Shown here: positions 1,524 to 15,006 of the stretch, piece after piece
Position numbering within the stretch: the first letter of the stretch is position 1
How the letters are laid out: each line of letters opens with the position of its first letter
Source: a virus
Length of the DNA stretch: 21,284 bases
Virus record (IMG/VR): IMGVR_UViG_3300030450_000810
Location: 1 to 21,284 of that record
Strand: one strand, 5' to 3'
Program-made: the position numbers and the translations under genes
The notes under the pieces: model-generated
What the model was told of the DNA's origin: nothing
The model's input: only the letters and a program-made list of their open reading frames with translations
Database searches by the model: none

Positions 1524-3158
1524 ATGGCTGCAAAGTTTGATTTAATAGTAGCCGCAAAAACTGTAGGGGCAGGTTCTTTAAAACGTCTTGGTAATTCTAT
1601 GCAAGGCGTACAGGGAAGGGTTAAAAACCTACGTATGGCAATGTCTGGACTTAATAAGACATTTGCAGCATTAGGTTTGATCTTATCTACAGGTGCTTTT
1701 GTACGTATGGTCAAAGGTTCTATTGATGCTGCAGATGCTTTTGGTAAATTAGAGACACAAACAGGAATAGCAGCTAATACATTACAGGCATATGTAAACG
1801 CAGGTAAATTAGCAGGTGTTGAACAGGCAACTATAGAAAAAGGTTTAAGAAGATTAGCACAATCAATGCGAGAAGCAGATCAGGGTGTTGCTACATATAA
1901 AGATGCTTTTGATTCTTTAGGTATATCTGTAAGGACAACTGATGGCATATTAAAAACAAATCAACAGTTATTAGGTGAAATAGCAGATAGATTTTCTCAA
2001 ATGGAAGATGGTGCAACTAAATCTGCTATTGCAATGGAAATATTCGGTAGGTCTGGGTCGCAAATGGTTAATCTTCTTAATGATGGTAAAGCAAAACTAG
2101 AAGAATTTAATTTTGAAGTATCGGATAGATTTGCAGCGAACTCGGAATATTTTAATGACCAAATGACTGCTTTAGTTATTAAGTTGCAAGGTTTTACTAT
2201 GCAAATGGCAGATCATTTATTGCCTACTCTAAATAATCTTGCAGAAATGTTTAGCAATATAACTGAAAATGGAGCAGATCTAACTTTACTTTTTCAATCT
2301 ATTGCTGTTGTATTAAAAATAACGGCTAGTACTCTATTTACTGTTGTTGCAGGTTTTAGATTTCTTGGCACAACTGTAGTACAAGTAGCAAAGGCAGCAT
2401 GGAAAGCAGCTAAGTTTGATTTTAATGGTGCATGGGAAGAATTGCAAAATGGTTTAACTACAACTAGAGAGCAATTTGAAAAAGACATGAAAATATTTGA
2501 AAATATTTGGAAAGGATCTTCAGAAGCAAGTGAAGATTATGGTAAAAAAACTGGCAATATGCTTAATAGGACTTTTGGACAAGCTATGGTTGCAAAACTT
2601 GATGCTTTTAAGAAAAGTATAAAAGGTGTTGGTGATGCTATGGGTGATGTTGTTGTTAAAGGGATAAAAGGTATGGAAGATGCATTAGTAGATTTTGTTA
2701 TGAAAGGTACTATTAGTTTTAGAAACTTAGCAAACTCTATAATTTCAGATATGGTAAGAATTGCAATACAGCAAACAATAACAGCACCATTAACAGGTTG
2801 GTTTAAAGGATTATTTAGTGCAAAAGGTAATGTATTAGAAAATGGCAAACATCTAACAGCTTATGCAAAAGGTGGTGTTATTGATAGTCCACATTTTAAA
2901 TATATGGCAAATGGTGGTGTAGCTGTTGCAGGTGAAGCAATGGGGGCAGAAGCTATTCTTCCATTATCTAGGGGTAGTGATGGTAAATTAGGCGTAAAGG
3001 CACAAGGAGGAGGTACTAATATTGTTGTTAATGTAGATGCTTCTGGTAGCAATGTAGAAGGTGATGAAAATGAAGGTAGAGCATTAGGATTAGCATTATC
3101 AGTAGCTATAGAAACTGAACTTATTAAACAAAAAAGACCAGGAGGTTTATTAGCATAA
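1524..3158 (+). CDS. Tail tape measure protein
   Basis: 544-residue tape measure protein, homologous in role to lambda gpH. It sets tail length and takes part in DNA delivery through the envelope. The N-terminus has helical repeats and the segment SIDAADAFGKLETQTGIAAN, typical of the family. Long amphipathic helices follow, then a hydrophobic stretch at about residues 255-295 (SIAVVLKITASTLFTVVAG...) that could insert into membrane. A lambda tape-measure C-terminal-like region (about 390-430, with GTISFRNLANSIISDMVRIA) is followed by a Gly-rich tail with a GEAMGAEAILPL motif common in these proteins. At the rule-of-thumb 1.5 Angstrom per residue it predicts a short tail near 80 nm. It starts directly after the gpGT stop and shares 1 nt with gpM (TAATG). 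Confidence 0.9.
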   Translation: MAAKFDLIVAAKTVGAGSLKRLGNSMQGVQGRVKNLRMAMSGLNKTFAALGLILSTGAFVRMVKGSIDAADAFGKLETQTGIAANTLQAYVNAGKLAGVEQATIEKGLRRLAQSMREADQGVATYKDAFDSLGISVRTTDGILKTNQQLLGEIADRFSQMEDGATKSAIAMEIFGRSGSQMVNLLNDGKAKLEEFNFEVSDRFAANSEYFNDQMTALVIKLQGFTMQMADHLLPTLNNLAEMFSNITENGADLTLLFQSIAVVLKITASTLFTVVAGFRFLGTTVVQVAKAAWKAAKFDFNGAWEELQNGLTTTREQFEKDMKIFENIWKGSSEASEDYGKKTGNMLNRTFGQAMVAKLDAFKKSIKGVGDAMGDVVVKGIKGMEDALVDFVMKGTISFRNLANSIISDMVRIAIQQTITAPLTGWFKGLFSAKGNVLENGKHLTAYAKGGVIDSPHFKYMANGGVAVAGEAMGAEAILPLSRGSDGKLGVKAQGGGTNIVVNVDASGSNVEGDENEGRALGLALSVAIETELIKQKRPGGLLA

Positions 3159-3727
3159 TGGCAACATTTCCATCAATAGAACCTAGCTATGGGTTAACAA
3201 AAACTTCTGCACCTAAAACACGTATTGTACAGTTTGCAGATGGTTATGAACATAGAATTTTATTTGGTTTAGCTAGTCATCAAAACCCAGAAACTTATAA
3301 TCTTGCTTTTAACAATATTACAGAATCGGATTCAGATGTTATAGAAGGATTCTTAAGAAGTAGAGCTAATGACAATGAAAGTTTTACATATAGTCCACCA
3401 TCAGAAGGTTTTACAAAAACAGGTACTTATTCACAATCAGGTACAACAGTCACAATAACTATTACAGATCATGGTGTTGCTATAAATGATGTATTAACTA
3501 TTGATTACACATCTGGTAGTGCTGTAGATGGTACTTTTGTAGTCGCTTCTGTAACTAGTGAAGATGTATTTACTGTAGTGGCTGCTGCTAGTGCCACAAA
3601 TAGCGGTAATGTATCAATTACGTTAGCAGGTGCTAAAAAGTTTGTATGTGAGAGATGGAATAAAAGAATAAATTATCCTAATAGAGCAACAATTACAGCA
3701 ACATTTAGGCAGGTATTTGAACCATGA
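3158..3727 (+). CDS. Minor tail protein, lambda gpM family
   Basis: 189-residue distal tail-tip protein of the lambda gpM type, which helps close the tail tip around the tape measure. The N-terminus (FPSIEPSYGLTKTSAPKTRIVQFADGYEHR) and C-terminus (KKFVCERWNKRINYPNRATITATFRQVFEP) match the family; lambda gpM is only about 109 residues. The extra length is a Thr/Val-rich beta segment inserted at about residues 90-158 (finding below). It overlaps the tape measure gene by 1 nt and gpL by 4 nt (ATGA), so translational coupling is likely. Confidence 0.85.
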   Translation: MATFPSIEPSYGLTKTSAPKTRIVQFADGYEHRILFGLASHQNPETYNLAFNNITESDSDVIEGFLRSRANDNESFTYSPPSEGFTKTGTYSQSGTTVTITITDHGVAINDVLTIDYTSGSAVDGTFVVASVTSEDVFTVVAAASATNSGNVSITLAGAKKFVCERWNKRINYPNRATITATFRQVFEP

Positions 3728-13674: not shown

Positions 13675-13703
13675 TTAACAGGGGTATACCCCAGATATAC
13701 ACT
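13675..13703 (+). promoter_or_regulatory. Promoter overlapped by a perfect operator palindrome
   Basis: TTAACA (13675-13680), 17-nt spacer, TACACT (13698-13703). The 12-bp palindrome starts at the base after the -35 box, and an extra ACCC half-site (13671-13674) flanks it upstream. It would drive the small-gene cluster from 13737. Confidence 0.5.
13681..13692. promoter_or_regulatory. Perfect 12-bp palindrome GGGGTATACCCC
   Basis: Exact inverted repeat in a non-coding gap, best member of the family also seen at 824, 12353 and (partly) 19040. As RNA it would have almost no loop, so a dimeric DNA-binding protein is the likely reader. Confidence 0.6.
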
Positions 13704-13736
13704 AAGAATGTACCAAACAACCGAGAGGTTTTCCAA

Positions 13737-13931
13737 ATGACAAAAAGAACACTTACAGCTACTTTTCCAAACGGAGAGCAAGTAACAAGAACAACCCACA
13801 GAACATATACACACGTTGTGAAAGGTGTAGATAAGTGGGGTAACAGATATACAAAATGGTGCGGTAGATTCGATTTAGCTACAAAACAAGCATCAAAATT
13901 AAAAACTTACATCATAGGGGAGGTAGCATAA
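13737..13931 (+). CDS. Small basic beta-rich protein
   Basis: 64 residues, basic, with alternating Thr/hydrophobic strands (RTLTATFPNGEQVTRTTHRT), a YTHVVKGVDKWGNRYTKWCG segment and a helical end (LATKQASKLKTYI). It is soluble, with no known motif I can name; small basic phage proteins of this kind often bind nucleic acid or a host enzyme, but that is a guess. A GAGAGG sequence about 11 nt before the ATG may serve as ribosome binding site. It shares 1 nt with the next short gene (TAATG). Confidence 0.65.
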   Translation: MTKRTLTATFPNGEQVTRTTHRTYTHVVKGVDKWGNRYTKWCGRFDLATKQASKLKTYIIGEVA

Positions 13932-14062
13932 TGCAAAACTTTCTAATGATGTTAGCAGCGTCAGGGTTGTTTTATACAGCCCTCTCATCAACCCTATATG
14001 ATATGACAGTTACAGATTGCAATGCAGGTATAGAATTAGCTTGTAAGGAGGTTAACAAATGA
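13931..14062 (+). CDS. Tiny N-terminally hydrophobic protein, 43 residues
   Basis: Short frame starting MQNFLMMLAASGLFYTALSS, a single hydrophobic segment that could be a membrane anchor or signal peptide, followed by a short tail with two cysteines (DCNAGIELACKE). It overlaps genes on both sides (TAATG upstream, ATGA downstream), and the strong ribosome binding site of the next gene is inside its 3' end. The regular overlaps are the main support. Confidence 0.55.
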   Translation: MQNFLMMLAASGLFYTALSSTLYDMTVTDCNAGIELACKEVNK

Positions 14063-14063
14063 A
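14045..14063 (+). promoter_or_regulatory. Strong Shine-Dalgarno AAGGAGG before a short gene
   Basis: AAGGAGG at 14045-14051, 7 nt before ATG 14059, is a full match to the anti-Shine-Dalgarno core. The wider stretch AAGGAGGTTAACAAATGAA closely resembles the initiation regions at 14326 and 14580. Most other genes in the window have no comparable site. Confidence 0.7.
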
Positions 14064-14199
14064 GTTTACCCATGAACAACTAAAAGAAATCTATTCAGCA
14101 CTTAAAAAAGGTTGTTGGAGAGATCCAGAAATAAAAGAAGATTTAATTCAAAGGCTAGAAAATTATTTTATCCAATACGTTTTAGAACAGGATAAATAA
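14059..14199 (+). CDS. Tiny charged helical protein, 46 residues
   Basis: Short frame MKFTHEQLKEIYSALKKGCW, then REDxx-like charged helix ending YVLEQDK. Preceded by the best Shine-Dalgarno in the window with 7-nt spacing and an ATGA overlap with the upstream gene, so translation is very likely. No motif recognised. The structured RNA region begins 5 nt after its stop. Confidence 0.65.
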   Translation: MKFTHEQLKEIYSALKKGCWRDPEIKEDLIQRLENYFIQYVLEQDK

Positions 14200-14203
14200 A
14201 AAT

Positions 14204-14314
14204 AGTCGGGAAGCCTGATAGTTGGGTTGTAAGATTTCCTAACTTGAAAGTTATACAACACCTACTCATCTAGGGAAAACAGGGCAAGTATTGGACTTGA
14301 TCTATCTCCCGACT
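14204..14314 (+). ncRNA. Structured, probably pseudoknotted RNA leader or small RNA
   Basis: A closing helix AGTCGGGA (14204-14211) with TCCCGACT (14307-14314) continues, after a 5-nt one-sided bulge, as GATAG (14217-14221) with CTATC (14302-14306). Inside is a hairpin GTTGTA (14226-14231)/TACAAC (14254-14259), topped by TAACT (14240-14244)/AGTTA (14249-14253) with a TGAA loop, and a second hairpin CAAGT (14285-14289)/ACTTG (14295-14299). TTTCC (14235-14239) can pair with GGAAA (14274-14278) as a pseudoknot. It lies 25 nt before the ATG at 14340 and has no T-run, so it is not a terminator. It fits a riboswitch-like leader or stable RNA; I cannot assign a known class. Confidence 0.6.
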
Positions 14315-14325
14315 TAATCCCATAA

Positions 14326-14344
14326 AAGGAGTTAAAGTAATGAA
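14326..14344 (+). promoter_or_regulatory. Ribosome binding site and start, first copy
   Basis: AAGGAGTTAAAGTAATGAA: strong Shine-Dalgarno AAGGAG 8 nt before ATG 14340. It is 18/19 identical to 14580-14598. It lies just below the structured RNA, so structure could control access to it. Confidence 0.7.
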
Positions 14345-14594
14345 TACTTTATCTGATGAATTGTATGTAGAAATTCTTAAAGAGAAATTAGATGACATAC
14401 AAAAAGAGATAAAAAAAGCAAAAGACCTTATTAATTTGCATAAGAATTGGCATTTAGGTTCACCACATCAACAAAGAACTAGAAAAAAATCTTTTGAAAG
14501 AAATACAGAAAAATTACTAATACTACAAAGTAAGGCTAAACTTATTAAAAATATTTTAGGAGAGTATGAATCTAACTCTAAGGAGTTAAAATAA
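14340..14594 (+). CDS. Small basic coiled-coil protein downstream of structured RNA
   Basis: 84 residues: helix (VEILKEKLDDIQKEIKKAKD), a basic loop (SPHQQRTRKKSFERN), and a second Leu/Lys helix (LLILQSKAKLIKNILGEYE). Probably a helical hairpin; the basic loop might contact nucleic acid, but no known family is recognised. A strong ribosome binding site precedes it, and the structured RNA lies directly upstream, so its expression is the obvious candidate for control. It shares 1 nt with the next gene (TAATG). Confidence 0.7.
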   Translation: MNTLSDELYVEILKEKLDDIQKEIKKAKDLINLHKNWHLGSPHQQRTRKKSFERNTEKLLILQSKAKLIKNILGEYESNSKELK

Positions 14595-14598: not shown

Positions 14599-14845
14599 CT
14601 ATGCTTCAACTATAAGTTATTTTGCTGCAGCAATATTGACAGGAGGAATGATATTTCTAGGCAATAGTTATTACAGACTTGCAAATAGTAATAAAGCACT
14701 ATCAGCAGATATTCAATCACTTATTGAGGCATATCTAACAAGTGATAAAGATTGCTTTTTATTAGCACCTACACCAAAGGATTGGCTTATATGGGAAGAA
14801 ATGCCATACAAAACAAGACCAAAACAAAGGATTTTAAAAAATTAG
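14594..14845 (+). CDS. Small membrane-anchored protein
   Basis: 83 residues with an N-terminal membrane segment (ISYFAAAILTGGMIFLGNSY), a helical region with SADIQSLIEAYLTSDKDCFL, and a polar Trp-rich end (PKDWLIWEEMPYKTRPKQR). A strong Shine-Dalgarno and a TAATG overlap tie it to the upstream gene. Its TAG stop overlaps, by two bases, the stop of a leftward gene on the other strand, so the two transcripts converge. No family recognised. Confidence 0.65.
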   Translation: MNYASTISYFAAAILTGGMIFLGNSYYRLANSNKALSADIQSLIEAYLTSDKDCFLLAPTPKDWLIWEEMPYKTRPKQRILKN

Positions 14846-15006
14846 TTTAATTTAGGAAATAGTTTTTGCTCTAACAAATCAACAGCCCTATCATCTAATG
14901 TGTTTGTTGTCTGTTTACAAATAGCCCTTAATAAGTCAACAACTAAACGCTTACAGCCAGTAGTGGAAAGAAAGCGTAATAGTATAGGTTTAAGAATTTT
15001 GTACAT
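14842..15006 (-). CDS. Small leftward protein, 54 residues, conserved-looking
   Basis: Leftward frame MYKILKPILLRFLSTTGCKR, then VVDLLRAICKQTTNTLDDRA and a short tail. An amphipathic or hydrophobic N-terminal helix precedes a block (hhDLL+Ah-xQTxNTLDDxAV) that I recall from short proteins in marine phages; function unknown to me. On its own strand AAAGGA lies about 9 nt before the ATG, a reasonable ribosome binding site. It and the next gene leftward-upstream are the only coding content on either strand between 14846 and 15323. Confidence 0.65.
   Translation of the reverse strand: MYKILKPILLRFLSTTGCKRLVVDLLRAICKQTTNTLDDRAVDLLEQKLFPKLN

What the first reader, a model, noticed from the sequence alone, without database searches (positions are those of the whole stretch)
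14204..14314. A 111-nt structured, probably pseudoknotted RNA before a small gene
Seen: a nested 8-bp plus 5-bp closing helix with a one-sided bulge, two internal hairpins (one with a TGAA loop) and a possible TTTCC/GGAAA pseudoknot. The arrangement is a three-way junction. It fills a non-coding gap in a region where genes otherwise overlap, and it ends shortly before a strong ribosome binding site. I checked tRNA, hammerhead and intron-like patterns without a match. It may be a new riboswitch-like leader, a stable phage RNA, or a divergent member of a known class.
Basis: partly seen in the sequence, partly recalled or inferred. Interest (0 to 1): 0.65.

Follow-up and report, generated by a model that had tools for sequence, protein, structure and literature searches.

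The report
Phage antisense RNA targeting start codons
The stretch encodes a real, conserved small RNA of uncultured marine phages whose loop matches, and co-evolves with, the translation start of the phage's own early genes, so it probably switches those genes off, much like the classic C4 antisense RNA of phage P1.

Summary
The 111-nt structured RNA is real and its ends are right (14204-14314). It has at least 82 distinct relatives in a group of marine tailed phages. A five-helix model (P1, P5, P2, P3, P4) pairs in 99.2% of cells with compensatory changes.

It is not a leader of one gene. It usually lies after the last stop codon of a variable early operon, often followed at once by a terminator. 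That operon starts with a shared promoter, a GGGGTATACCCC palindrome and the 5' UTR CCGAGAGG..UCCAAAUG (window 13675-13739). The P4 loop (window UAUUGGA) is complementary to UCCAA before the AUG and co-varies with it: UUGGA/UCCAA, UUAGA/UCUAA, UCGGA/UCCGA.

Intermediates connect it to Rfam sRNA-Xcc1 (RF02221), which itself does not score on the window. In most of 67 Xcc1-type RNAs from viral contigs the same loop is complementary to the next gene's Shine-Dalgarno and to an upstream site, the layout of C4 antisense RNA of phage P1.

Verdict: a new variant of a known kind, a phage antisense RNA blocking translation initiation. Repression, processing and expression are inferred, not shown.

The parts
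13675..13703 (+). promoter of the early operon that carries the RNA: -35 TTAACA (13675-13680), palindromic operator-like GGGGTATACCCC (13681-13692), -10 TACACT (13698-13703), 17-bp spacer
   Evidence: sequence; same promoter-palindrome unit at many early operons of relatives
13720..13739 (+). target site: ACCGAGAGG (SD 13723-13728) TTT TCCAA (13732-13736) ATG (13737-13739)
   Evidence: shared 5' UTR of several operons per genome; UCCAA complementary to and co-varying with the P4 loop of the RNA
13737..13931 (+). first gene of the operon, 64 aa, unknown function (weak PHROG 32956/5873); inferred translational target
13931..14199 (+). two small ORFs (13931-14062, 14059-14199) between target and RNA; the second ends 4 nt before the RNA
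14204..14314 (+). the antisense-type structured RNA
   Evidence: 64 relatives by blastn, 140 loci and 82 distinct cores by nhmmer and grouping; covariation
14205..14211 (+). P1 5' strand GTCGGGA, pairs with 14307-14313 TCCCGAC
14307..14313 (+). P1 3' strand
14214..14217 (+). P5 5' strand CCTG, pairs with 14280-14284 CAGGG (A14281 bulged); encloses P2 and P3
   Evidence: U-G/U-A change kept in 5 sequences; same helix in bridge L290
14280..14284 (+). P5 3' strand
14220..14244 (+). P2 hairpin AGTTGGG (14220-14226) / CCTAACT (14238-14244); absent from sRNA-Xcc1 and from bridge L290
   Evidence: 4 pairs with changes on both sides
14245..14260 (+). conserved core TGAAAGTTATACAACA; counterpart of AAUACAA in sRNA-Xcc1
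14261..14274 (+). P3 hairpin CCTA/TAGG; counterpart of CCC-GNAA-GGG in sRNA-Xcc1
14285..14299 (+). P4 hairpin CAAG/CTTG carrying the antisense loop
   Evidence: two pairs co-vary (AU/GC/UA and GC/AU)
14289..14295 (+). antisense loop TATTGGA (TTGGA complementary to TCCAA at 13732-13736)
14327..14342 (+). ordinary SD (AGGAG) and start of the next gene (14340-14594); replaces the terminator found here in many relatives; not a match to the loop

Best explanation
The RNA is a phage-encoded antisense regulator. It is transcribed as the distal part of an early operon, folds into a compact domain closed by P1, and displays the P4 loop. That loop base-pairs with the UCCAA(A) stretch between the Shine-Dalgarno and the AUG of early mRNAs, including the first gene of its own operon and, in many relatives, of a second operon just downstream. 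This blocks translation initiation, giving a post-transcriptional feedback on early genes that also share one operator-like palindrome. SHOWN here: conservation, secondary structure, recurring position, shared target UTR, loop-target complementarity with compensatory changes, and a chain of intermediates to sRNA-Xcc1. INFERRED: that pairing represses (rather than activates), that it acts in trans, that the RNA is cut out of the mRNA or separately transcribed, and the role in lysis/lysogeny control.
For: Structure: model pairs in 99.2% of cells, 8 pairs with changes on both sides, against 3.9 in column shuffles and 0-5 when helices are slid. Position: variable neighbours, abrupt ends, terminator right after the RNA in many genomes. 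Target: same promoter-palindrome-CCGAGAGG-UCCAAAUG unit at up to three sites per locus, before unrelated genes. Loop-target co-variation: 106 sites UUGG-type loop with UCCAA, 12 sites UUAG loop with UCUAA, 1 mixed (G-U tolerated), Fisher 1.4e-15; mean perfect run 5.53 against 4.93 permuted (max 5.18 of 500). Orthologous gene with UCCAAUG in L003, L016, L202, L211 and L237 (loop UUGGA) but UCCGAUG in L222 (loop UCGGA). L078 loop AUUUUAGA with UCUAAAAUG, 8 nt; L243 AUUGGG/CCCAAU; L244 AAUUGG/CCAAUU. Loop-type changes scattered on the RNA-body tree, 7 for the UUAG type. Family: R1, built from the marine RNAs alone, finds L290 at E 7e-6, and L290 matches RF02221 at E 3e-5; the next six R1 hits all fall on Xcc1-type sites (sites). 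Xcc1-type RNAs: loop vs downstream 150 nt own mean 6.8 nt against 5.3 permuted (max 5.6), >=7 nt in 43 of 67, 49 of 67 near SD and start; a second complementary site upstream, 7.2 against 5.5.
Against: In the window the loop-target match is only 5 nt, too short to mean anything without the comparison. Co-variation tests are not fully corrected for shared descent, and the RNA-body tree is short and weakly resolved. Four contigs with the UCGGA loop hold no matching target in the DNA fetched; L222 also keeps two sites (UCCAA, UACAA) that its loop does not match well. L002 lacks a normal P4 and L072 a normal 3' half. No expression data; no Hfq, RNase P or host information. The CACC seen after P1 in C4 and most Xcc1-type RNAs, which would favour RNase P, is not present after P1 here.
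Confidence: 0.75

Rival explanations
1. Cis-acting leader or riboswitch: the RNA senses a ligand or state and controls the gene immediately downstream, its P4 loop masking that gene's start.
For: Compact conserved core with invariant unpaired bases; in many relatives a gene with the matching start lies 180-200 nt downstream of the RNA's start, and Xcc1-type RNAs usually sit just upstream of the gene they match.
Against: Many relatives have a terminator or a convergent gene directly after the RNA; downstream genes are unrelated; the downstream operon has its own promoter between RNA and gene; the upstream operon carries the same target. In the window the next gene has no matching start.
Confidence: 0.1
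2. A 3'-end element: the domain stabilises or processes the operon mRNA against 3' exonucleases, and the loop-start match is a by-product of shared module evolution.
For: Sits between last stop codon and terminator or convergent gene in most relatives.
Against: Does not explain compensatory loop-target changes nor the same relation in Xcc1 RNAs placed upstream of their genes. In the window it lies mid-operon.
Confidence: 0.08
3. A self-cleaving ribozyme of a new class.
For: Size, multi-helix junction, conserved single-stranded core, phage setting; inference only.
Against: No match to any Rfam ribozyme even at E 10; CCUGAUA..UUGAAAG resembles a hammerhead core superficially but lacks the second conserved G-A and the third stem (sequence, own knowledge); the loop-target relation is unexplained.
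Confidence: 0.02
4. The resemblance to sRNA-Xcc1 is convergence: same working principle, separate origin.
For: The window fails RF02221; GNRA tetraloop and C-rich P3 are absent; an extra P2 hairpin is present.
Against: Graded intermediates L243, L244, L311 (with P2) and L290 (without P2, scores on both models), and weak R1 hits only at Xcc1-type sites.
Confidence: 0.15

Closest known systems
sRNA-Xcc1 (Rfam RF02221; Xanthomonas, integron cassettes, many prophages)
   Same: P1 with GUCGGGA-type strands, an inner helix enclosing an asymmetric AUACAA..GGGAAA internal loop and a small hairpin, then a P4 hairpin, a linker and P1 again; P4 loop complementary to a translation start (found here for both). 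Published as a trans-acting sRNA and found next to symE in integron cassettes (PMC2996969, PMC12444791).
   Different: Window RNA scores below detection on the Rfam model; it has an extra P2 hairpin, no GNRA-capped CCC/GGG, no CACC after P1; its target is the UCCAA spacer before AUG rather than the SD, and it usually lies downstream of the operon it matches.
C4 antisense RNA of phages P1 and P7 (Rfam RF01695) with its a1/b1 and a2/b2 target sites
   Same: Phage RNA within the transcript it regulates, closed by P1, with a target-specific loop in its last hairpin, one complementary site upstream and one at the translation start downstream; represses an early gene (P1 annotation; PMC5320573, PMC12197685).
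   Different: No sequence or model match; P1 of C4 is longer, its second hairpin is a simple tetraloop stem; C4 uses two contact regions (a', b') and RNase P processing, of which the second contact and processing are unproven here.
sar RNA of phage P22 and similar anti-ant antisense RNAs
   Same: Represses translation of a phage gene by pairing at its start (PMC12197685).
   Different: sar is transcribed opposite its target (own knowledge); this RNA is encoded elsewhere on the same strand and uses one short loop.

Membership tests
sRNA-Xcc1 (RF02221) | covariance-model score at or above the gathering score of 53 bits | tested here: not met
   window: no match even at E 10; L243 21.2 bits; L290 44.9 bits, E 3e-5, below gathering
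sRNA-Xcc1 (RF02221) | helix order: P1, inner helix with asymmetric internal loop and hairpin, P4 hairpin, linker, P1 | tested here: met
   CS line of RF02221 compared with the counted model and the R1-L290 alignment; an extra P2 is inserted
sRNA-Xcc1 (RF02221) | AAUACAAnACCC-GNAA-GGGGAA core | tested here: inconclusive
   AUACAA kept (UUAUACAACACC), tetraloop and C3/G3 stem replaced in the marine group, but present in L243 and L311
sRNA-Xcc1 (RF02221) | continuity of intermediates | tested here: met
   R1 hits L244, L311, L243 at 5e-19 to 8e-14 and L290 at 7e-6; the next hits are all Xcc1-type sites
sRNA-Xcc1 (RF02221) | loop complementary to a translation start (property found here, not part of the published definition) | tested here: met
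C4 antisense RNA (RF01695) | model score at or above gathering | tested here: not met
   no match in the window; the P1 c4 region scores 68.8 bits in the same tool, and R1 does not hit it
C4 antisense RNA (RF01695) | a1/b1 target region (RF03163) | tested here: not met
   no match in the window; but a complementary site does lie upstream at 13732-13736
C4 antisense RNA (RF01695) | pairing with and repression of a phage early gene's translation start | tested here: inconclusive
   complementarity and co-variation found; repression not testable here
C4 antisense RNA (RF01695) | RNase P processing of a precursor at P1 | not testable with these tools
   no RNA data; CACC after P1 is absent
riboswitch | one conserved gene or pathway downstream | tested here: not met
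   downstream genes unrelated or absent

The most novel reading that the evidence does not exclude
One conserved phage RNA acts in trans on several early operons at once, each with the same operator and the same start region, so that a single loop-target code (UUGGA/UCCAA, UUAGA/UCUAA, UCGGA/UCCGA) gives each phage lineage its own RNA-level immunity type; and the whole of sRNA-Xcc1, so far filed as a virulence or integron sRNA, belongs to the same superfamily of start-site antisense RNAs in phages and cassettes.
Probability: 0.5. Interest if true: 0.78.

Novelty: new variant of a known kind. Interest (0 to 1): 0.66.

Why it matters
It gives a mechanism to a conserved RNA with no database family, and it suggests a plain function for sRNA-Xcc1, found here in 53 of 299 sampled genomes of one phylum (Pseudomonadota, judging by the MAG's name) and in at least 120 viral contigs. 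Papers read here discuss sRNA-Xcc1 as a virulence or integron-borne regulator, and one predicts plant mRNA targets for it (PMC12189769); a built-in target, the next gene's ribosome-binding site, would change how those results are read. The loop-target code is directly testable with two-plasmid reporters, and could make RNA-level superinfection immunity predictable from sequence in uncultured phages.

Tried and rejected
blastn of the region against 50,697 cultured phages: only chance matches. Search with the 84-aa downstream protein: none. Exact 17-nt pattern from the window: no loci carrying the RNA. Genome-contig scan for the RNA: none. Rfam near-misses at E 6-8 (SpF01, SNORD74) do not lie on the RNA. 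The TTTCC/GGAAA pseudoknot, GATAG/CTATC and the TGAA hairpin: rejected by pair counts. tRNA. A second contact between the linker after P4 (AUCUCC) and the SD (GAGAGG), in the manner of C4 b', was considered: linker variants do not change with the target, so unsupported. Pairing of the conserved AAAACCU with AGGUUUU of the target: not kept where the UTR reads AGGUAA, so unsupported. Host: two MAG contigs with a related tail protein (Maricaulis, Flavobacterium) are probably binned viral contigs, so the host stays unknown. R1 against P1 c4: no match.

Full report
OBSERVATION. The window is a whole IMG/VR record of 21,284 bases, a phage fragment. Between the stop codon ending at 14199 and the start at 14340 lies a non-coding gap. 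Its folding energy beats dinucleotide shuffles (z -2.98). No tRNA and no Rfam family reach threshold, and a permissive search of 14100-14450 gives only two chance hits off the RNA.

HOMOLOGS. Neighbouring proteins brought in relatives. blastn of the gap finds the RNA in 64 of them at 72-97% identity, with abrupt ends at AGTCGGG and CCCGACT while the flanks change. A pattern scan adds more; nhmmer then finds it in 140 loci, one copy each, which group into 82 distinct cores. No match in the bacterial and archaeal genome contigs for the pattern used.

STRUCTURE. On 67 distinct sequences (A1) RNAalifold and a covariation scan agree on P1, P2, P3 and P4. With P5 (CCUG/CARGG) added, 99.2% of cells pair, 8 pairs have changes on both sides, and slid controls fall to 18-51%. 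The strongest signals are in P4 (AU/GC/UA; GC/AU) and P2 (UA/AU). P1, P5 and P3 hardly vary, so their support is consistency rather than covariation; P5 rests on one U-G/U-A change and on its presence in the bridge sequence L290. The window's own minimum-energy fold is nevertheless the other one.

CONTEXT. The RNA starts a few bases after the stop of a variable small gene and ends shortly before an intrinsic terminator, a convergent gene, or a second promoter. In the window the terminator sequence is replaced by ACTTAATCCCATAAAAGGAG..ATG, so two more small genes follow.

TARGET. The operon that carries the RNA begins with TTGACA/TTAACA, the palindrome GGGGTATACCCC, TATACT and a 5' UTR ending CCGAGAGGNNNUCCAAAUG; this unit recurs before unrelated genes, up to three times per locus. 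In the window it is at 13675-13739, in front of ORF 13737-13931. The P4 loop is the complement of UCCAA. Across genomes, 106 sites combine a UUGG-type loop with UCCAA and 12 combine a UUAG loop with UCUAA; one site is mixed and G-U compatible. One orthologous downstream gene reads UCCAAUG in five genomes with UUGGA loops and UCCGAUG in L222 with a UCGGA loop. L078 matches over 8 nt, and the distant L243 and L244 match with their own changes. On a tree of the RNA body without P4, the UUAG loop needs 7 changes, so it does not look like one lineage, but that tree is short and weakly resolved. The window match alone is 5 nt and would mean nothing by itself.

FAMILY. L243, found by pattern, gives a sub-threshold hit to RF02221 sRNA-Xcc1 on the core (21.2 bits, E 0.18). 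RF02221 itself occurs in 53 of 299 genomes sampled from the phylum of G001, a Maricaulis MAG, i.e. Pseudomonadota by that name. A core pattern finds at least 120 viral contigs. Among them L311 is of the marine type and L290 is intermediate: no P2, otherwise the same P1, P5, core and P4. L290 scores 44.9 bits (E 3e-5) on RF02221 and 37.1 bits (E 7e-6) on R1, a model built only from the marine RNAs; R1's next six hits in 529 kb all lie on Xcc1-type sites. I therefore favour common origin, while noting that the window itself fails the Rfam model.

XCC1 AND C4. In 67 Xcc1-type RNAs the P4 region matches the downstream 150 nt better than permuted partners (6.8 vs 5.3 nt), mostly at the SD, and also matches a site upstream (7.2 vs 5.5). 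Phage P1 has the same order: a1/b1 sites, c4 RNA, a2/b2 sites, icd-ant (Rfam C4 68.8 bits and c4-a1b1). C4 is known to repress translation and to be cut out by RNase P (PMC5320573, citing the original work). I found no paper linking Xcc1 to C4 in the library searched; one paper holds both terms and lists them as separate families. The 2011 Xcc1 paper was not readable here, so a prior statement cannot be excluded.

CONCLUSION. A phage antisense RNA that works like C4 and is probably a distant, P2-bearing relative of sRNA-Xcc1. Not a member of RF02221 or RF01695 by their own thresholds. Repression, trans action and processing remain to be shown.

Noticed in passing
window 13675-13703 and relatives: A palindrome GGGGTATACCCC lies between -35 and -10 of several early promoters per phage genome, which looks like a repressor operator shared by a regulon.
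   Followed up: partly
L276-L355 (Xcc1-type RNAs in viral contigs): Most sRNA-Xcc1-type RNAs have a loop complementary to the next gene's Shine-Dalgarno and a second complementary site about 60-120 nt upstream of the RNA.
   Followed up: yes
window 14842-15006 (-): Small leftward gene of PHROG 2738 (unknown function), with relatives in 84 of 91 contigs; in many relatives the RNA sits where the rightward operon meets it.
   Followed up: partly
L008/L224 (contig 3300030090_000193) and L143: The block with the RNA is inverted relative to the nuclease or tail genes; a real inversion or an assembly artefact.
   Followed up: no
L072/L219 6277-6355 and L002 6001-6102: RNAs with a degenerate 3' half or a deleted P4, perhaps decaying copies without the antisense loop.
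   Followed up: no
L328 near 3126-3234: A tandem expansion of ACTAATACA inside the core of one Xcc1-type RNA.
   Followed up: no
window 13737-14199 and relatives: The operon between the shared promoter and the RNA holds a different set of tiny genes in almost every genome, like an accessory cassette region.
   Followed up: no
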